41,813 bases of DNA from Bacteriovoracaceae bacterium (lineage in GTDB: Bacteria > Bdellovibrionota > Bacteriovoracia > Bacteriovoracales > Bacteriovoracaceae): the NCBI GenBank assembly GCA_029865945.1, contig JARXAH010000077.1, forward strand, positions 1 through 41,813. Direction: 5' to 3'. Positions 1 through 34,881 of the stretch are shown piece after piece. The notes beneath the pieces are model-generated. The model was not told the origin of the DNA, did no database searches, and saw nothing but the letters and a program-made list of their open reading frames with translations. A program made the translations under genes and the position numbers. The number at the start of each line of letters is the position of its first letter. Position 1 is the first letter of the stretch.

Positions 1-97
1 TCTCAAGCAGTTGTCTAGCGCCCTTTCTAATGACGTCAGTAAAAGCATCATCAAAAGACGATGGTTTTTGGGGAAAATCTTTGATAACTTTATTCAC
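1..97 (-). CDS. IS256-family (mutator-type) transposase, N-terminal fragment cut by window edge
   Basis: Only the first 32 codons are inside the window. They contain DVIRKGARQLLE, which resembles the conserved N-terminal segment of IS256/mutator-type transposases (typically a 'REGARxML' motif before the catalytic DDE domain). I chose the GTG at 97 because an AAGGAG sequence lies 6 bases upstream of it (complement of 104-109). An in-frame ATG at 115 is possible but has no such site. The catalytic domain and the far end of the element are outside the window, so I cannot say whether the element is intact. The family call rests on a short motif and is moderately sure. Confidence 0.55.
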   Translation of the reverse strand, partial: MNKVIKDFPQKPSSFDDAFTDVIRKGARQLLE

Positions 98-154
98 GGC
101 GTACTCCTTTTCCATTAAAAAATTTGATCGTTTTATAATGACAGCGTACGCCAC

Positions 155-630: not shown

Positions 631-3600
631 TTATAGTCCAGCACCGGTTTTTAGTTTTTTTAAAGTGAAATCGATTGATGGATCATCATAATTTTGCTCA
701 AGTAATTTTGAGGCAAGCTGCCTCTGATTTTTATTTAAAAAATAATTTCTAAACCATTCAAGATACTCAATTTTTGATATTTCTTCTTCCTTCCACTTTA
801 TCCATAAAGGATTTCCCTGTTTTTTCGCTTTAACCATCAGAACAATCGCACTAAGGTCATTTGAAGCGATGGCCGCTTTGGCCATGGAATTAAGTTCCTT
901 AATGATGGGTGTGTCTTGCTTCAGTATATTACTAAACAATTGATTAGCAATTAAAGGAAAAAGTTCTGGGTGAAGAGTGCCTGAGTTTGGGCCAAAATTA
1001 AATTCAATCACTTTCCACTGCGGCCTATTTTTTCCTTGAATCTTTGCAATATCAACACCAGCACTTAGCATCTTAAATTCTGGAGGTAGTTTATCTAAGA
1101 AATTTCTCTGCAAAAATTGAGAGGCTTCTTCCATGTCTTTTGGAAGGTAATTAAATCCAAACCGATCGCGAATGGACACAATTTCACCGTAGATAATATC
1201 AATTCGAATTTCAAAAGGTGTTCCCGTGATTGTTTTTAATATTGTTTGCTCTGGTTGAAAAAAAATTGCGGAGGGTTCAAATAGCAAGTGCGATATAAAC
1301 TTAGTATAGGCCTCTGCGCCAACTTGATTCAGAGCTGTATCCCAATTTTGTTGATGAATTTGGCCCTTAGAATTTAAGAAACTTAAAACTCTTCGGTAAA
1401 ATTCTAGCGCCATAATCTTGGGATTAGACAAGGAAGTCGCCACCACATTCCCTAAATCTGCCGTTGCGTATTCTCCAAAACCTTTAAAATAGGTTCCCTG
1501 AGGAAATAACAATCTCGTTTGGTAAAATATTTCATTAATTAACGAGACGATAGTGCCAATAGTTTCTGTTTTATGCAAACTCCACCAATGATAATCATTT
1601 CTTTCTAATTTACTTACCAGATCATTTTTTATTTTTTCAATCTTTTTAAAATTTTCTTTTTTATAATCTTTAAGCGCATCTAAAAAATAGCTTTCAAGGT
1701 AAACATCAGGCGTATATTTATCTGCAAACGCTAATTCGTGACCTTTGTTTTTTAGCAATGCTAACCAGTAGCCATTTCCAGAGAGAAGGTCGCGAGCTCC
1801 AGGGCCAACGTCATTGAACATTTTTCCGCCGATGGATTTAGAAGACACGTGAAGAAGTGTTGAATTAAAGAAATTATTTACTTGTGTTCCTGAGCGATCA
1901 TAGAAAAATGTTTGACCAGGAAAGCCTAGAAATCTTTCTAAGTCTGGTAGTGCCTCTTCTTCTAAATGTTCTTTGGGTACCATTCCACCATCAAATATCA
2001 ACTTAAAGGTAGTGCCTGGTTTGATAAGTGGCTCCCCACTCGCGAGGGGATAGTTGGTGCGTGGAGTATTAAAGTTATTCCAATCATTAATTAGTCTGGG
2101 TGAGCTTGGATCTCTTTTCATATTTTCGAGGAGTTTGTTGGAATATAATTTTTGAATTTTTCTTAAATCGCTGAGTGAGGTCAAAGAAGGAGATGCAGAA
2201 TTTTTTGGTAGTAATCCGTTTGCGAGATCTTTGGAGATAAGTAGGGGGCGGTTGTGTGTTTCAGCAGGTTTATTTGGCCTAATGATGGTGTATTGACTGG
2301 CGTCTTCTGAATGACCTCCAAAGGGAATGGAACCAGATTCTCCTACGAAGATAGATTCTCCGGGTACGACTCCATAACCGTAAGACATTAAGAGATAAAT
2401 TAAGTTAGTTGTAGGAGAAGTCGCGTAGGGTTTTCCTATGACCGATGCGTACATGGCAATTCTTCTTAGATCTTCACGACCTAGCAATCTTTTAATTTGT
2501 GCGTAATCATCATAAAAGATGATGGGAAGAATGGGAGAGTACAATTCAGGAAAGTGAATATCATTATTTAAGACATCAGTTAGATTGAAGCCTAACACGG
2601 TAGGATGAATAATTCTTCTTTCACTATCTGGTGCACCGATCTGGAAAATTATATTCGCAGCGTGCTCATTTAAAAAGTCTATCGGTTTGTTAAGATTTTT
2701 TGACATGTTCAACGGGGTGTAGGTTAAAAGTTCATCGCTTGAATTTCCATCTTTTGAAAAATGAAATTTCCCAACTTCACTACGAACTTTTTCCAATAGG
2801 GCGCTTCGATGACTTTTTGGGGCAAGATAAAAGTTGGGAAAAATACAATCTTGCCCAGAATTAATTCCAAGGCTTTCGGTCATAATTTTAACTGCAAGAT
2901 TGATATCAACATCTTCTGACATGATGAGCGGATTTGAACCTACTCCAAAACTAAAAAAGTGTAATGGCTTTTCTAATTCTTTGTGATTCGAAAAGTGTTT
3001 AGAAATGCTATTGACGATGGTTTTACTTGTCTCAGGAGAGCCCGTGAAAACCACATAGTCAACAGGTGCCCGGGGTGCATTTTTAATCTTTCCTAAAACA
3101 TCCTCATTTAAAAAATTTTGGTAAACTGTATTTTCCGGTGAAAAAAGAATTCTTAAATTATCCACATTCCACCCAAGTTTTTTCATTTCAGCGGCGATTA
3201 AGTTGTATAAGTTTACATAAATTTCACGCGTTGCTTCTGGTGTTCTAAACCAAATTTGATCTGTATAACTTAGAGGAATAAAGCCATTAAGAAAGAGTGT
3301 GTAGAGGGGAATATTTGTCGCTGCGTAAACAGCTCCGTGTTCAATGGATTTTTGAGAATTCAAAAGACGTAAAATAGATCCACCTTCCATCCAATTAACT
3401 TGATCAAGTGTATCGATGACTTGCGTCCACTCATAATTTATTCCTGGAGACGTTTCAATTTTTGCTAACTCAGCTCGGATTTGACCTTCCACTTTGAGTA
3501 ATGACGACTTTAAATTTTCAAAATATTGAGCGAGCTTTTCAGTCATTTTGTTTTCTGGAATACTTTTTAAAACCTTGTAAGGTGAAGGGGAAGTTTCATA

Positions 3601-4167
3601 GATCTTCCCACCTTTGGGATCAACGATGGAAATTACTGGCCCATAATTTCCCGGCCTTTGTCCCGCCCACTGAGTTGACCAATCTTCTAAAGTTTTTAGT
3701 AATGTTTCATCTTTGGAGTTCGAAGTGAGGATGTACTGATTTCTTCCTTGGTTTGCTCTCAAGCCTAATGTGGCAGCGACTCTCTTAGGGTTTTTAGTAA
3801 AGAGTACGACAAATATCCCATCGTTTTTAAAAAAATTACTTTGTAATTTTTCTAGCGATTGAATCAAGGTTGCGTCTCCTCCCGCTTGAACTACAAATTT
3901 TTTAACAAACTCCAGGTCTTGTTGACTTAATTGATTTGCGAGTAAAACTTGGTAATCGATTCCATTAATCTCTACTTCAACCCCATTATTGGTCGAAAAC
4001 AAGGAGCACAAATTAAAATCATTTTCAGCAGACCATCCTAAAATGGGAAAGAGAAGAAGAGAAAAAAATAGAAAAACGTTGCGAAAAACGTTGCAAAAAA
4101 CGTTGCACGTGAAGGAGCACGGTGAACTTAACGGGTGACAATCAATCCTAGCAAAAGTTGCATGCAA
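631..4167 (-). CDS. exported protein with aldehyde-dehydrogenase-like and ATP-grasp-like domains
   Basis: A 1178-residue protein. Residues 1-47 form a long signal sequence with a hydrophobic core (FLFFSLLLFPILG) ending at WSA-EN. Residues 48-240 are unassigned. Residues about 245-650 resemble the ALDH superfamily: FTGSPETS at 374-381 matches the NAD-binding FTGS motif, SGQDC places the catalytic cysteine at 441, ELYSPILP at 541-548 matches the EiFGPvlp motif, and FGGHSEDAS follows at 617. The usual LELGG glutamate is replaced (FSFGVG, 405-410), so the general base appears to be missing. Residues about 780-1090 look ATP-grasp-like, with a lysine in TYFKGFGEY (892-900), RID (988-990) and a metal-site-like EFNFGPNSG (1055-1063). 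The substrate is unknown. Export of an ATP-grasp-like protein is odd because the periplasm lacks ATP. The ATG at 4167 has only a distant AAGGA. It lies 110 bases downstream of the GT4 gene on the same strand. The ALDH assignment is fairly firm; the ATP-grasp assignment is moderate. Confidence 0.75.
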   Translation of the reverse strand: MHATFARIDCHPLSSPCSFTCNVFCNVFRNVFLFFSLLLFPILGWSAENDFNLCSLFSTNNGVEVEINGIDYQVLLANQLSQQDLEFVKKFVVQAGGDATLIQSLEKLQSNFFKNDGIFVVLFTKNPKRVAATLGLRANQGRNQYILTSNSKDETLLKTLEDWSTQWAGQRPGNYGPVISIVDPKGGKIYETSPSPYKVLKSIPENKMTEKLAQYFENLKSSLLKVEGQIRAELAKIETSPGINYEWTQVIDTLDQVNWMEGGSILRLLNSQKSIEHGAVYAATNIPLYTLFLNGFIPLSYTDQIWFRTPEATREIYVNLYNLIAAEMKKLGWNVDNLRILFSPENTVYQNFLNEDVLGKIKNAPRAPVDYVVFTGSPETSKTIVNSISKHFSNHKELEKPLHFFSFGVGSNPLIMSEDVDINLAVKIMTESLGINSGQDCIFPNFYLAPKSHRSALLEKVRSEVGKFHFSKDGNSSDELLTYTPLNMSKNLNKPIDFLNEHAANIIFQIGAPDSERRIIHPTVLGFNLTDVLNNDIHFPELYSPILPIIFYDDYAQIKRLLGREDLRRIAMYASVIGKPYATSPTTNLIYLLMSYGYGVVPGESIFVGESGSIPFGGHSEDASQYTIIRPNKPAETHNRPLLISKDLANGLLPKNSASPSLTSLSDLRKIQKLYSNKLLENMKRDPSSPRLINDWNNFNTPRTNYPLASGEPLIKPGTTFKLIFDGGMVPKEHLEEEALPDLERFLGFPGQTFFYDRSGTQVNNFFNSTLLHVSSKSIGGKMFNDVGPGARDLLSGNGYWLALLKNKGHELAFADKYTPDVYLESYFLDALKDYKKENFKKIEKIKNDLVSKLERNDYHWWSLHKTETIGTIVSLINEIFYQTRLLFPQGTYFKGFGEYATADLGNVVATSLSNPKIMALEFYRRVLSFLNSKGQIHQQNWDTALNQVGAEAYTKFISHLLFEPSAIFFQPEQTILKTITGTPFEIRIDIIYGEIVSIRDRFGFNYLPKDMEEASQFLQRNFLDKLPPEFKMLSAGVDIAKIQGKNRPQWKVIEFNFGPNSGTLHPELFPLIANQLFSNILKQDTPIIKELNSMAKAAIASNDLSAIVLMVKAKKQGNPLWIKWKEEEISKIEYLEWFRNYFLNKNQRQLASKLLEQNYDDPSIDFTLKKLKTGAGL
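4071..4106. repeat. three 12-bp tandem repeats inside the signal-peptide coding region
   Basis: Three consecutive copies of gaaaaacgttgc (the third begins with a instead of g) occupy 4071-4082, 4083-4094 and 4095-4106. In the minus-strand gene they encode repeated N-V-F-C/R units just before the hydrophobic core of the signal peptide. The unit is four codons long, so gain or loss of a copy would keep the frame. Confidence 0.85.
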
Positions 4168-4277
4168 TAAATGATTCCTTCATAAAGAAGTTGCAATGAT
4201 TACTCTAACTCAAGTTTCATGCTCGACATAGAATGAGGAAAAATTTTCCTCTTAAATTTATGAATAATTTGCTGGCC

Positions 4278-11480: not shown

Positions 11481-13457
11481 TTAGATATTTTTCAAAACAG
11501 ATTGTGCGACTCGCTCAATTTCATGATCTTTCAAGTAAGGATGCATCGGTAAACAAATTACCTGAGACGCCGCTTTATCAGACAGTGGATAGTCTTCCGG
11601 GGCAATTTTTAATCCCTTGTAATAAGGCTGTTTATTTAAGGAGAGCGGGTAATGAACGGAAGTGGGAATTCCTTCGGCCTGCATTTTTTTGGCAAGGGCC
11701 TCTCGATCACTTACTTCGATAGTGTACTGAGCATAGATACAAGTTCGCTCTGGCATGACGGAAATATTTTTCACTTTACCGCCCAATAATTCATCATATT
11801 TTTTGGCAACCGCATGTCTCGCTTTTACTTCTTCAGGAAAAATGGCCAATTTCTCGAGGAGAATGGCGCATTGTAATGTGTCTAGCCTTCCATTAATTCC
11901 AAGACGAGTATGATAGTAGCGACGCTCTTGTCCGTGGACGCGAATCTCTTTCATCACATGGGCAAGTTGATCATCATTTGTAAAAATGGCGCCGCCGTCT
12001 CCGTAGCAACCAAGAGGCTTAGCAGGAAAAAAACTTGTTCCAGAAACTAAACTTAAATTTCCTGATTGCTTACCTTTATAAGTCGCACCAAAACTTTGTG
12101 CTGAATCTTCCATCACATGAATTCCGTGACTTTGCCCTATCGCATTGATCTGATCCATGTCGGCGGTTTGTCCATACAAACTAACCGGGATGATCGCTTT
12201 TGTTTTTTTCGTAATCTTCGCCTCAAGCAATTTATGATCCATGGTGTAGGTGAGGGGATCGATATCAACGAAAACCGGTTTAGCTCCTAAAAGAGAAATC
12301 ACTTCTGCTGATGCAAAAAAACTAAAGGCCGAAGTAATGACTTCATCTCCTGGTCCAATACCCAAGGCCATAAGGGGCACCATGAGTGCATCCGTTCCAT
12401 TGCTCATCGCAAGAGCGTGCTTACATCCCACATACTTAGCGAGGGCCGCTTCTAATTGATCATGCTCTGGGCCTAAAATGTATTGCCCGTGCTCTAATAC
12501 TTGCTCAATACGTTGCTGTATTTTTGGTTTAATTTTTTGATATTGAGTTTTTAAATCAATAAAAGGAAGACTGTCTTTTGGCGTTGCTGCTGTCGTCATA
12601 GAGAACTCCTTAAGAGATGAACTTGTCGTTTCTTTTTGGATAGATGGTTTATTAACGTCTGATAATAATTCGTAATATTTAGTATATTTTATAACATTAG
12701 CGTAGGCCGATGATAAGGACCAAATGAATCCTCGTAGGCCATCAAGAATTCCCAGTCTAAGAAAATAAATTTTAAAAAAAGTGATTTTAAAACGCAGTAA
12801 AAGAGTGAGGGCGTTGGGGGGATTCTTTGCCCCATTTTGCACAAGTAATTTTTTTGCCATCGCGTCGCTGTAATGATTCATGCGATTAAGGTAGTCACTA
12901 AGGGAGTGATAACTTCGGTGCATCATTTCTCCCTGAAGACTTCCTATCAGACTTCCCATCGACTTAAGGCCAAGGTTCTGCGTAAAAGGAAGAACTTCTT
13001 CATGAACTAGGGCATGATTGAAATTAGCAAAGGATTTGTGAAAAAAACGTACCACTGGTCTTTTGTTCTCGCCGCTAAAATTTAAGGGATGATTTAAGAA
13101 AATGAGGGTTCGAGGCACTGAATAAATTTTTAGAACAAAAGTTTTTGTTTCCAGCGCAAATTTTTTTAATTCGCTTTGAAGCTCGTCAGAGCACCACTCA
13201 TCTGCATCGATGGAAAAGATCCAATCATTTGACGATTTAGATACTGCCAATTGTTTTTGCGGCCCATAGCCAATAAAGGGAGCTTCAAAAAATTTCACTG
13301 ATGGGTAGGATAAAGAAATTTCTTTCGTTTTATCTGTACTGAAGGAGTCGACAATTATAATTTCGTTACAAAAAGATAATGAATCTAAACAGCGCGCGAT
13401 ATTGCGCTCTTCGTTCTTAGTTATCAGAACTGCTGAGATTTGGTAATTTAATGACAT
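11481..13457 (-). CDS. GT2 glycosyltransferase fused to DegT/DnrJ/EryC1 aminotransferase
   Basis: A 658-residue protein made of two complete enzymes. Residues 1 to about 260 are a GT2 transferase of the WaaE/KdtX type: ISAVLITKNEERNIARCLDSL, IIIVDSFSTDKT, the DxD-like FSIDADEWC, and a HEEV/H-rich acceptor region. These usually add a hexose to the LPS core. From residue 287, MTTAATPKDSLPFIDLKTQY begins a 372-residue PLP sugar aminotransferase, the normal length for that family. It has MSNGTDAL (PLP phosphate), EDSAQ (Asp stacking on PLP) and the Schiff-base lysine in FFPAKPLGCYGDGGA (residue 480 of the fusion). The junction methionine is in frame and has a strong ribosome site, so the second half may also be made alone. 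It sits upstream of metH and diverges from GT9 17 bases away. Confidence 0.9.
   Translation of the reverse strand: MSLNYQISAVLITKNEERNIARCLDSLSFCNEIIIVDSFSTDKTKEISLSYPSVKFFEAPFIGYGPQKQLAVSKSSNDWIFSIDADEWCSDELQSELKKFALETKTFVLKIYSVPRTLIFLNHPLNFSGENKRPVVRFFHKSFANFNHALVHEEVLPFTQNLGLKSMGSLIGSLQGEMMHRSYHSLSDYLNRMNHYSDAMAKKLLVQNGAKNPPNALTLLLRFKITFFKIYFLRLGILDGLRGFIWSLSSAYANVIKYTKYYELLSDVNKPSIQKETTSSSLKEFSMTTAATPKDSLPFIDLKTQYQKIKPKIQQRIEQVLEHGQYILGPEHDQLEAALAKYVGCKHALAMSNGTDALMVPLMALGIGPGDEVITSAFSFFASAEVISLLGAKPVFVDIDPLTYTMDHKLLEAKITKKTKAIIPVSLYGQTADMDQINAIGQSHGIHVMEDSAQSFGATYKGKQSGNLSLVSGTSFFPAKPLGCYGDGGAIFTNDDQLAHVMKEIRVHGQERRYYHTRLGINGRLDTLQCAILLEKLAIFPEEVKARHAVAKKYDELLGGKVKNISVMPERTCIYAQYTIEVSDREALAKKMQAEGIPTSVHYPLSLNKQPYYKGLKIAPEDYPLSDKAASQVICLPMHPYLKDHEIERVAQSVLKNI
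12597..12611 (-). promoter_or_regulatory. internal Shine-Dalgarno and in-frame ATG at the fusion junction
   Basis: On the minus strand AAGGAG (complement of 12606-12611) lies 6 bases before an ATG at 12599-12597. That ATG is codon 287 of the fused reading frame and is exactly where an independent DegT-type aminotransferase would begin. Spacing and sequence are close to ideal, better than for most genes in the window. Confidence 0.75.
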
Positions 13458-31650: not shown

Positions 31651-34600
31651 ATGAGATTAATTTTTTATTTCTTTGTTTGCCTTTTTTCCATTTCTCAACT
31701 TTATGCTCAGCCTGTGATTTCGTCACAACCGGATTCTCCTAAAAAGCCTCCAAATGGTCAGAATGGAGATTCACCTGGAGATAAAGGAGGAAACGCCAAC
31801 CCTCCAGAGGACGCTAAATCTTCAGGAAATATTGACGTTTATGTCAAAAGAGTTCCAAGAGGCAATGAATTTCTCTACGAATTTAAAATTATTAAAATAG
31901 ATCCGTATACGGGCGCACCAAACGAATCTACTTATCAGTTTTCCGAAGACGGAAAAGAGATGATTGTGATTAAGGCCGAAGGAGTGGAAGGAGCGAATGC
32001 AGGAGATGGAGGCGACGGTGCAAAAGGTGCAGATGGTGACCCAGGCATTCCAGCTACTCCCTATTCTATTGGGACAGATGGGGAAGATGGGAAAAAGGGT
32101 GGGGATGGTGGACTTTCAACGAATGGAGGCAAAGGTGGGAACGCAGGACGAGTGAAAATTCATCTAAACTTAGAAGATCTCTCTGCTCTCAACCTCTTCA
32201 ATGAACAAATATCCAAAGGTTTGCTTGACGGAGTTATTCCCGGTGGCCTTGGGGGAAATTTTGGTCGCCATGGCCGTGGTGGTCGTGGAGGCGAGGGAGG
32301 AGATGGTGGTTCGGAGTACAATGGTTCAAGAACGAAAACCGTGAGGGATCAAGACGGAAATGAACGTGATGAAACAGAATCCTATACCATTCAAGGTGGT
32401 GAAGACGGAGATCCAGGTAAGGACGGAAATACGCCCACCGATCCTTTGAGCCCTGGAGAAAAGGGAAAAGATAATACATTTGAAATTCATGTTACTAACA
32501 CAGACGGTTCGGTTGATATTTTCACGAAAGGAAAGTTTCAGTATCAAGTAGAGTTTGTTAGCGTAACTTCTGGTGAGCCTTGGAAAGCTGGTAAGGGCGG
32601 GAACTTTGAACCCGGAGAAAAATTAATAATCAAATTAATTGTAGAAAATGTTGGAAACATGCTAACTCCGCCAGGTCAAAAAGTGATATTGAGAGTTGAT
32701 CTTCCAAGTAGTTTAAATATTGAAGGAGGGCCTAACCAAGTTTTAGAAGTGGCCCTTAATCAATCTCTTAAACCCAATGAAAAGGTTGTCATCGAGCAGC
32801 CCATCGAAGTTAAAATCAAACCAGCATCAGGTCCAATTATAGATAATCAAGACCCGACAAATCCATTTACAGTTGCGGTTGAAACTTTTCAGTTCAGGCC
32901 CGGATCAAAAAAATTTCTAACGTCTGGTACCTATGCACCCGCAGTTGAGATTCACGCAGTGGTTGGATCCCGTACCTTAAAGCCTGGTCAATCGACTAAA
33001 GTTCGCTTCAACATTAAAAATATTTCGCCTGTGGACTTCGGGTCGGACAGTGAAACTGGACGTATTTTACAAATAAATATTCAACAAATGTTAGACCCAC
33101 ATAACTCAAATCCCAATCGTGATTTAGATTTGGGTGATGTTAAGTTTGTAGGCACGAATGGAGTTGAGATTCCACTGAGTGAAGTGTTTGCTGAAAAAAT
33201 AAAGGATCTTAAAGCTGGTGAACAAAGGGTAGTGGAGGGAAAAATAATTCTTGCTTCCAATGTGAAAGCTTACCAACAAGGTAATGTGGTTTTTGATTTG
33301 TATTTAGGAAACTTGGGAAATTTAAAATTACCTGATCTCATTTGGAAAAGAGGTTTTAAGGTACAAGTTGGACGAAAGTTTGAATTGTCCAAAGATTCTA
33401 ATAACCCCACCAAGCTAGTTGTCGTCACCAATAATAGAACGAGTAATTCAGAGCTTTTATTTTATCAAAATTTTGCGGATAAACTTGGCATTCATATGGC
33501 CGACTATAATTTGTCACTTTATGGAAAAATTGATTGGAAGCTTTTCAATGATCTTCAGGGTTCTATTGTTGTTTTTTTAAATAATGAATTTGATCCTCGA
33601 TCTTCTCAATCATCTAATAATCCATGGCCTGCGGAATTTTTATCTATCAAAGACACGTTTGCACAATTTTATAATCACAATCAAAAAAACAATTTTCTCT
33701 TTGTGGGCCCACATGAATGGGGAGTAGAAATGGGAAAAAGAATCACTCCTTTAGTGAATACTACTCAGTCAACAAATTTTGAATCCCCCGAAGAATTATT
33801 AAACGCAATGCTAAAGGAGTCAGCGGCCACGGGAGTTATGGGTTTTGAAACTTCAGATATTGTTGAAATCAAAGCAGGTGTATTTGGAGAGAGTAGCGAA
33901 GACGCTTTGGAACAAAAGGCCAGAGAAATGGCGGAAAATTTGAAAAAAGCGCATCCCGAAAAACGGTTTTTTGTCACTTACGAGTATGATCCAAAAACAA
34001 AAAAAGGATTTTTTGGCATAATGAATAAAAAATCTTTGGGACAACTCATTGTCTATCGAAGCTTCGATCGCAGTGCCTCGCATTTTGGTTATTTTTGCAC
34101 CGATGCTGGCCTAAGTTCCGATTCAGATTTGAATCTAGAGGCCCATTATTTTAGTTTATTTAAAATGATGAAAGTAGATGATGTTCTCAATTTTCTACTG
34201 ACTCGCCCAGACGATCTTTTTGATTTAAATAGTGCTTTTGGCCGTGGAATGCAGGGCGCTCTTTTATCTCAGTTTGCCAGTGAGTTATTATATGGAGTTG
34301 AATCTCAAGCAACTGATATAAATAAACTTTTTCCTTCCTTTCAGCGGTTAAAATCATTTTCCTCAAACCAAAACTTTTCTGAGGCGAAGAAACGTTTCAT
34401 GAATGAATTGTTCGCTCATTTAGAATTTATGATTAAACCAGACAATTCGGCTTGGGCGAATACCGCAAGTTTCGTAACGAGCATTTTCATTGTAAGCACG
34501 TATCAAGATAATTTAAAAAAATTATTAGCGATTGTTCAAAATGCTCACTTAGCAGGGGAAGAGGATTATATAAAAGCAAAATTAGCAGAATTGCGGAAAA

Positions 34601-34881
34601 TTTATGCGGCAAGTGGAATGGATCTAAGGACTTTAATGCTGTCGTATATCAACGTAGGAGGCTACCAAGCTTTTAAAAGTATGCATGATGTCTTCCCCGA
34701 TAATCCGGTTCTTCCTACTGGAGAGATGGCAAATACAGCTGCTGCAAACGCTGAATTGGATGCTAAAGCTCAAAAGCTGGGGGAAGACGAAGTGGCCTTG
34801 CGAACAGGAGATACAGGTGGGCAGTTAACTGAGGAACAAAGAAAAATTTGTGAAGAAAATGTTTTGCCTAAGGTGAAATAA
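31651..34881 (+). CDS. large exported protein with Gly-rich collagen-like region
   Basis: A 1076-residue protein. Residues 1-19 are a signal peptide (FFVCLFSISQLYA-QP). Residues about 25-55 are Pro/Gly/Asp-rich. Residues about 110-175 and 195-275 carry irregular G-x-x and GG repeats (NAGDGGDGAKGADGDPG, GRHGRGGRGGEGGDGG, GEDGDPGKDGNTP). Residues about 285-560 look like tandem beta-sandwich domains of the CARDB/NEW3 type (LIIKLIVENVGNMLTPPGQKV, TKVRFNIKNISPVDFG). The remaining 500 residues are alpha/beta and unassigned. The protein is probably periplasmic or surface-exposed, and adhesion or structural roles are guesses. ATG 31651 has only a weak GGA upstream. It precedes the exported redoxin gene by 85 bases. 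Confidence 0.8.
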   Translation: MRLIFYFFVCLFSISQLYAQPVISSQPDSPKKPPNGQNGDSPGDKGGNANPPEDAKSSGNIDVYVKRVPRGNEFLYEFKIIKIDPYTGAPNESTYQFSEDGKEMIVIKAEGVEGANAGDGGDGAKGADGDPGIPATPYSIGTDGEDGKKGGDGGLSTNGGKGGNAGRVKIHLNLEDLSALNLFNEQISKGLLDGVIPGGLGGNFGRHGRGGRGGEGGDGGSEYNGSRTKTVRDQDGNERDETESYTIQGGEDGDPGKDGNTPTDPLSPGEKGKDNTFEIHVTNTDGSVDIFTKGKFQYQVEFVSVTSGEPWKAGKGGNFEPGEKLIIKLIVENVGNMLTPPGQKVILRVDLPSSLNIEGGPNQVLEVALNQSLKPNEKVVIEQPIEVKIKPASGPIIDNQDPTNPFTVAVETFQFRPGSKKFLTSGTYAPAVEIHAVVGSRTLKPGQSTKVRFNIKNISPVDFGSDSETGRILQINIQQMLDPHNSNPNRDLDLGDVKFVGTNGVEIPLSEVFAEKIKDLKAGEQRVVEGKIILASNVKAYQQGNVVFDLYLGNLGNLKLPDLIWKRGFKVQVGRKFELSKDSNNPTKLVVVTNNRTSNSELLFYQNFADKLGIHMADYNLSLYGKIDWKLFNDLQGSIVVFLNNEFDPRSSQSSNNPWPAEFLSIKDTFAQFYNHNQKNNFLFVGPHEWGVEMGKRITPLVNTTQSTNFESPEELLNAMLKESAATGVMGFETSDIVEIKAGVFGESSEDALEQKAREMAENLKKAHPEKRFFVTYEYDPKTKKGFFGIMNKKSLGQLIVYRSFDRSASHFGYFCTDAGLSSDSDLNLEAHYFSLFKMMKVDDVLNFLLTRPDDLFDLNSAFGRGMQGALLSQFASELLYGVESQATDINKLFPSFQRLKSFSSNQNFSEAKKRFMNELFAHLEFMIKPDNSAWANTASFVTSIFIVSTYQDNLKKLLAIVQNAHLAGEEDYIKAKLAELRKIYAASGMDLRTLMLSYINVGGYQAFKSMHDVFPDNPVLPTGEMANTAAANAELDAKAQKLGEDEVALRTGDTGGQLTEEQRKICEENVLPKVK

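What the first reader, a model, noticed from the sequence alone, without database searches (positions are those of the whole stretch)
631..4167. Exported fusion of an ALDH-like domain and an ATP-grasp-like domain
The sequence shows a signal peptide, an unassigned N-terminal domain, an ALDH-type domain with its catalytic-type Cys441 but without the usual LELGG glutamate, and a C-terminal domain with ATP-grasp-like RID and EFNFGPNSG motifs. From established knowledge, ALDH/acyl-CoA-reductase domains make or use thioester/aldehyde intermediates and ATP-grasp enzymes activate carboxylates, so a relay between the two domains is conceivable. I know of no described family with this architecture plus a signal peptide. 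Export to an ATP-free compartment is puzzling unless the protein acts inside another cell, for example a prey cytoplasm (inference), or the ATP-grasp fold has lost its activity.
Basis: partly seen in the sequence, partly recalled or inferred. Interest (0 to 1): 0.75.

Follow-up and report, generated by a model that had tools for sequence, protein, structure and literature searches.

The report
Exported ALDH-like/ATP-grasp fusion enzyme
A bacterium of a phylum known for predators makes an exported protein that joins two normally cytoplasmic enzyme folds, one needing NAD(P) and one needing ATP; relatives in the phylum share it, which suggests these bacteria deploy such enzymes outside their own cytoplasm, possibly inside prey.

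Summary
The 1,178-codon gene (634-4167, minus) encodes a signal peptide, an orphan N-terminal segment, a complete ALDH fold and a complete ATP-grasp module. The TTG start is supported by an AAGGA site and by coding signal in codons 48-207. Five relatives in Bdellovibrionota have the same fusion (one cut by its contig end), all with signal peptides. The ALDH part belongs to a distinct clade (100/100 with Streptomyces cluster enzymes) that keeps the catalytic Cys but replaces the general-base Glu, as acylating ALDHs do. The C-terminal part is ATP-grasp by Pfam R2K hits in relatives, by fold search (D-Ala-D-Ala ligases) and by invariant K/R/D/ExN. dN/dS is 0.058 in the ALDH part of a close pair. 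Not foreseen: 20 of 21 readable ORFs with this ATP-grasp type in the phylum carry a signal peptide or lipobox, including Amidoligase_2+ATP-grasp fusions. Most likely it is an exported carboxylate-activating enzyme whose acyl group passes to the Cys of the ALDH-like domain, used where ATP and NAD(P)H exist outside the producer, possibly in prey. Export is a well-supported prediction; the relay and the prey site are inference.

The parts
4176..4180 (-). Shine-Dalgarno-like AAGGA, 8 nt before the TTG start
634..4167 (-). exported ALDH-like/ATP-grasp fusion, 1,178 aa (stop codon 631-633)
4030..4167 (-). signal peptide, residues 1-46 (long n-region with a CNVF/CNVF/RNVF repeat, core VFLFFSLLLFPILG, WSA|EN)
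   Evidence: rule-based, no SignalP available
3547..4029 (-). N-terminal segment, residues 47-207; coding, without convincing relatives
2203..3546 (-). Glu-less ALDH-like domain, about residues 208-655
2950..2952 (-). S406 at the place of the ALDH general-base Glu
2845..2847 (-). C441, catalytic-type Cys (QDC)
   Evidence: present in all 23 sequences compared
733..2100 (-). ATP-grasp module, about residues 690-1145 (region before 800 is poorly modelled in the window protein)
1483..1485 (-). K895, invariant Lys of the ATP-grasp
1204..1206 (-). [quoted passage not shown]
1051..1053 (-). D1039, invariant acidic residue
997..1005 (-). E1055-F-N1057, ExN metal/ATP motif
4235..4251 (-). hairpin between the upstream glycosyltransferase gene and this gene, terminator-like
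   Evidence: 2 found over both strands, 0.2 expected

Best explanation
An exported two-domain enzyme. Shown by computation: signal peptide, complete ALDH fold with catalytic Cys but no general base, complete ATP-grasp with its catalytic residues, the same architecture in five further Bdellovibrionota genomes, and purifying selection in a related pair. Inferred: the ATP-grasp domain turns a carboxylate into an acyl phosphate; because the ALDH-like domain has lost the base that hydrolyses the acyl-enzyme, its Cys accepts the activated acyl group and NAD(P)H reduces it to an aldehyde (or the acyl group is passed on to another acceptor), by the same logic as the kinase/reductase pair ProB-ProA or the fused P5CS. 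Inferred with less support: since ATP and NAD(P)H are not held in the producer's own periplasm, the enzyme works outside the producer where they exist, such as the contents of an invaded or lysed prey cell. The organism's lifestyle is not known.
For: Relatives with the same order of parts and signal peptides: G018/L040, G062/L043, G024/L044, G257/L041, and G256/L042 cut by a contig end. ALDH clade: fusion plus Streptomyces 100/100 apart from 14 ordinary ALDHs; E in 14/14 ordinary, S/R/Q/K/G/T in 9/9 of the clade, Cys in all, coenzyme-site residues kept as N285, R308, G376, E541. Acylating ALDHs lack this Glu (PMC4762007). Streptomyces members lie in operons with an adenylate-forming enzyme and a ThDP enzyme. 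ATP-grasp: with negative control 112. dN/dS 0.058 in the ALDH part of L041/L042, 0.85 in the signal region. Export is a family trait: 20 of 21 readable ORFs, against 13 ordinary ALDHs without a convincing signal peptide. Exported Amidoligase_2+ATP-grasp fusions. R2K CDC123 proteins are predicted T6SS/T4SS effectors (PMC4431377), and two Legionella effectors have ATP-grasp folds (PMC11696984), so ATP-grasp proteins used in another cell have precedent.
Against: No biochemical data for any member. Signal peptides were judged by simple rules, not SignalP; the window's own site (W at -3) is not a typical cleavage site. No gene for a substrate or product was recognised; neighbourhoods are not conserved between the fusions. 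The relay is not the only reason for two domains to be fused. The fusion is in only 6 of 369 genomes of the phylum, so it is not core to any lifestyle. Predation by this organism was not tested.
Confidence: 0.42

Rival explanations
1. Exported amide/peptide ligase with an accessory ALDH-like domain: the ATP-grasp domain joins an amine to a carboxylate (as R2K and D-Ala-D-Ala ligases are thought or known to do), modifying proteins or cell-wall peptides, and the ALDH-like domain does a separate step or only binds.
For: R988 is the Arg typical of the amide-forming ATP-grasp clade (PMC4431377); the same exported ATP-grasp type is fused to Amidoligase_2 in relatives; best structural matches are D-Ala-D-Ala ligases.
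Against: The catalytic Cys and coenzyme-site residues of the ALDH-like domain are kept and that domain is under strong purifying selection, so it is hardly just a binder.
Confidence: 0.3
2. It acts in the producer's own envelope or at its surface, with ATP and NAD(P)H supplied from lysed cells or by leakage.
For: Relatives have plain Sec-type signal peptides or, in one case, a lipobox, which take a protein to the envelope; no link to an injection system was seen next to the genes.
Against: Two cofactors not held in the periplasm would be needed at once (established knowledge).
Confidence: 0.18
3. Cytoplasmic enzyme: the start is downstream (ATG at codon 208) or the hydrophobic segment is misread.
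For: Codon 208 is the first ATG, near the start of the ALDH fold.
Against: Codons 48-207 are coding, ATG-208 has no clear ribosome site, TTG-1 has one, and relatives carry signal peptides, four of them directly before the ALDH part.
Confidence: 0.05
4. Degenerate, non-catalytic exported protein that only binds.
For: The ALDH Glu is lost, and the window protein is the most diverged of the set (25-27% identity).
Against: K, R, D, ExN and the ALDH Cys are invariant; dN/dS 0.058 in a related pair.
Confidence: 0.05

Closest known systems
R2K clade of ATP-grasp enzymes (CDC123/R2K.1, R2K.2, R2K.3; PF14243, PF18299)
   Same: Pfam R2K_3 and R2K_2 match relatives of the fusion; conserved K, R, D, ExN; Cdc123 structure among the matches; predicted use in other cells for some CDC123 proteins (PMC4431377).
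   Different: Exported by a Sec-type signal peptide and fused to an ALDH-like domain; the clade's second loop Lys/Arg is not conserved; ExN, not the ExGD of R2K.3.
Aldehyde dehydrogenase superfamily (PF00171), acylating/Glu-less enzymes
   Same: Fold, catalytic Cys, coenzyme-site residues.
   Different: No general-base Glu, one extra residue in FGxGxNP in place of LGGKxP, QDC in place of Q(T/V)C, exported and fused.
Streptomyces cluster 'aldehyde dehydrogenase family protein' beside ThDP and adenylate-forming enzymes (L032, L033, L141)
   Same: One clade with the fusion's ALDH part (100/100), shared FGxGxNP, QDC, PFGG and RPLLxS motifs.
   Different: Single-domain, no signal peptide; neighbouring ATP-grasps are L-amino acid ligase type, not R2K.
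ProB-ProA / P5CS (kinase plus Glu-less ALDH-type reductase)
   Same: Works-like comparison: ATP-dependent acyl phosphate made, then reduced at an ALDH-fold Cys (established knowledge, not tested here).
   Different: The kinase fold is not ATP-grasp; cytoplasmic.
RloABC / RimK-RimB systems (PMC12239564)
   Same: ATP-grasp enzyme tied to an envelope function.
   Different: There the ATP-grasp protein RloC stays in the cytoplasm and a protease is exported; here the ATP-grasp itself is exported.

Membership tests
ATP-grasp superfamily | ATP-grasp fold | tested here: met
   AF2 of orthologue C-terminus pLDDT 79.7, pTM 0.81; Foldseek top hits D-Ala-D-Ala ligases, E 2.8e-4
ATP-grasp superfamily | Lys in RAGNYA strand 2, acidic residue, ExN | tested here: met
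   K895, D1039, E1055/N1057 invariant in 7 of 7
R2K clade | profile match to R2K Pfam models | tested here: met
   6 of 7 relatives (best 6.8e-9), though not the window sequence itself
R2K clade | second conserved Lys/Arg in the loop just after the strand-2 Lys | tested here: not met
   loop reads KGFGEYATADLG / KNYGESTTGDLG, no conserved K/R (definition in PMC4431377)
R2K.3 family | ExGD motif | tested here: not met
   EFNFG / ELNTG
ALDH superfamily | ALDH fold and catalytic Cys | tested here: met
hydrolytic ALDHs | general-base Glu (Glu268 type) | tested here: not met
   S406; S/R/Q/K/G/T in the clade, E in 14 of 14 ordinary ALDHs
CoA-acylating ALDHs | use of CoA as acyl acceptor | not testable with these tools
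   no assay; absence of Glu alone fits but does not show it
exported proteins (Sec) | n-region, hydrophobic core, cleavage site | tested here: met
   rule-based scan, relatives agree; the window's own cleavage site is atypical; no SignalP
Amidoligase_2 (PF12224) | profile match in this protein or genome | tested here: not met
   none in the window's genome; the gene downstream of the G257 fusion does not match an amidoligase profile either

The most novel reading that the evidence does not exclude
Predatory bacteria of this phylum export a set of ATP-dependent ligases and reductases (ATP-grasp, amidoligase+ATP-grasp, ALDH-like+ATP-grasp) that run on the ATP and NAD(P)H of the cell they invade; the fusion here is a carboxylic acid reductase of a new type, ATP-grasp activation followed by ALDH-fold reduction, acting on prey molecules.
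Probability: 0.15. Interest if true: 0.85.

Novelty: new variant of a known kind. Interest (0 to 1): 0.6.

Why it matters
ATP-dependent ligases are not expected outside the cytoplasm. A phylum in which 20 of 21 readable proteins with this ATP-grasp type carry an export signal points either to enzymes that work inside another cell or to an unrecognised supply of ATP outside. Both are directly testable, and the fusion suggests a route from carboxylate to aldehyde by ATP-grasp plus ALDH fold that was not found described in the papers searched.

Tried and rejected
A single-sequence scan of genome contigs and scans of viral contigs found no relatives; phage records gave only ordinary ALDHs. Plasmids: only the ALDH part, in Streptomyces, and ordinary ALDHs; none for the ATP-grasp part. 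The Streptomyces ATP-grasp neighbours are L-amino acid ligase type, so they are not a split-gene version of the fusion partner. I suspected that the exported gene overlapping the G257 fusion (L041 10873-12945) was an amidoligase from its 'GLEAEINI'; Pfam and hhalign (0.2%) gave no support, so this was dropped. A match of residues 27-97 to G010 was not reproduced when the N-terminal segment was searched alone. The full-length AF2 model is poor (pLDDT 53) and says nothing about how the domains pack.

Full report
The gene. ORF 634-4167 on the minus strand (stop 631-633) reads 1,178 codons from TTG. The TTG has AAGGA 8 nt upstream; codons 48-207 have the same in-frame coding score as the rest (+0.20; other frames -0.27 and -0.39; upstream -0.38); the next in-frame starts, TTG-53 and TTG-56, and ATG-208 have no clear ribosome site. 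So translation starts before the hydrophobic segment. A hairpin at 4235-4251 separates it from an upstream GT4 glycosyltransferase; nothing ties the two genes together.

Where it occurs. A search of relatives found the full fusion in three other genomes of the same family, G018, G062 and G024, and, with a profile, in G256 and G257 of another family of the phylum. A scan of GTDB contigs gave five loci, named in GenBank as Oligoflexia or Bdellovibrionia bacteria (lineage of the latter). In G256 the gene is cut by a contig end. All six begin with a hydrophobic signal segment, and in four relatives the ALDH part follows it closely. The 160-residue N-terminal segment of the window protein is coding but has no convincing relatives.

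ALDH part. Pfam finds 369-561, but the fold starts near residue 208: the full-length AF2 model, though poor overall (pLDDT 53), matches ALDH structures at 1e-12 over 420-510 columns, and Streptomyces ALDHs align from residue 202 to 647. At the general-base position the fusion and Streptomyces proteins have S, R, Q, K, G or T, the 14 ordinary ALDHs all E; the Cys is in all; N285, R308, G376 and E541 sit at coenzyme and oxyanion positions (roles of these positions from established knowledge of ALDHs). A maximum-likelihood tree puts the six fusions and three Streptomyces proteins together at 100/100, apart from 14 ordinary ALDHs, with a warning of long branches. Acylating ALDHs lack the same Glu (PMC4762007). 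In Streptomyces these genes are followed by a ThDP enzyme and an adenylate-forming enzyme, which fits an enzyme fed with activated acyl groups. Between the close pair L041/L042 the ALDH part has dN/dS 0.058, the signal region 0.85.

ATP-grasp part. The window's own sequence has no Pfam match there, but six of seven relatives match R2K_3 and R2K_2. An AF2 model of the L040 C-terminus is good (pLDDT 79.7, pTM 0.81) and its best PDB matches are D-Ala-D-Ala ligases, with biotin carboxylases and, at rank 48, human Cdc123, a member of the R2K clade. E-values are modest (2.8e-4), but the listed hits are all ATP-grasp proteins. K895, R988, D1039 and E1055/N1057 are invariant in seven proteins, two of them without an ALDH part. 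Two features that define R2K or its third family were tested and not met: the second loop Lys/Arg and ExGD. I therefore call it R2K-like ATP-grasp, not an R2K member.

The pattern around it. The C-terminal profile found 21 of 369 genomes. Reading the ORFs: ALDH fusions (six), ATP-grasp proteins without a second recognised domain (seven: L063, L064, L093, L094, L095, L102, L104), and fusions with Amidoligase_2 (seven: L097-L101, L103, L131; Pfam E 1e-14 to 1e-21), one of them with two ATP-grasp-like parts and a lipobox. Of 21 ORFs with a readable N-terminus 20 have a signal peptide or lipobox; L106 has none. Thirteen ordinary ALDHs from the same phylum, read in the same way, show none that is convincing. 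hhalign ties the two groups of ATP-grasps (99.3%, 3.8e-20; control 1.1%). Amidoligase_2 itself occurs in 47 of 358 genomes, in short forms without and other forms with signal peptides. This pattern makes chance or a mis-called start in the window very unlikely.

How it probably works. Step 1, export, is well supported as a prediction. Step 2, ATP-dependent activation of a carboxylate, follows from the fold and residues. Step 3, transfer to C441 and reduction, is inferred from the lost Glu, kept coenzyme site, and the fusion itself; it is like ProB-ProA in logic. Step 4, the place of action, is the least sure. ATP and NAD(P)H are not held in the periplasm (established knowledge), so a foreign cytoplasm or its released contents is the simplest place, in a phylum with known invasive predators. 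ATP-grasp proteins sent into other cells are predicted for CDC123 in T6SS loci and Legionella (PMC4431377; PMC11696984), and secreted toxins aimed at prey have been proposed for Bdellovibrionota (PMC12419801). No injection system was found next to the genes here, and the organism's lifestyle is unknown.

Novelty. No paper held describes an ALDH/ATP-grasp fusion or the exported group; most subscription journals are missing from that library. Both folds are known; the architecture and the exported family were not found described, so I file it as a new variant of a known kind.

Noticed in passing
L098, L099, L100, L101, L103, L131, L097 (G349, G208, G254, G355, G367, G043): Exported Amidoligase_2 + ATP-grasp fusion proteins across Bdellovibrionota; L097 is a predicted lipoprotein with an ATP-grasp-like part, an amidoligase and a second ATP-grasp domain.
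   Followed up: partly
L037 3473-5014 (+), G024: Protein with a signal peptide and a protein-kinase domain (HLDIKPQN, DLD; Pfam 2e-9), 2.5 kb from the G024 fusion: another ATP-dependent enzyme that looks exported.
   Followed up: no
L036 3270-4295 (-), G062: ParBc_2 (ParB-like) protein with an N-terminal signal-like segment, about 4.4 kb from the G062 fusion.
   Followed up: no
L041 10873-12945 (+), G257: Exported 690-aa protein of unknown family overlapping the end of the fusion gene by 14 nt; not an amidoligase by profile.
   Followed up: partly
L040 protein C572/C592, L043 protein C794/C814, L044 protein C642/C662: Two Cys in the region before the ATP-grasp core are present together in three fusions and absent together in the window, G257 and G363 proteins: a possible disulfide, which would fit export.
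   Followed up: no
window 4071-4107 (minus): Tandem repeat of about 12 nt (GCAACGTTTTT) three times inside the n-region of the signal peptide (CNVF CNVF RNVF).
   Followed up: no
window 1-108 (minus): Open frame at the contig end (VNKVIKDFPQKPSSFDDAFTDVIRKGARQLLE) that looks, from memory, like the start of an IS256-type transposase; the assembly probably breaks in an insertion element.
   Followed up: no
window 11481-13457 (-): One ORF joins a GT2 glycosyltransferase to a DegT-type sugar aminotransferase.
   Followed up: no
window 31651-34881 (+): 1,076-aa protein with only a weak DUF7932 match.
   Followed up: no
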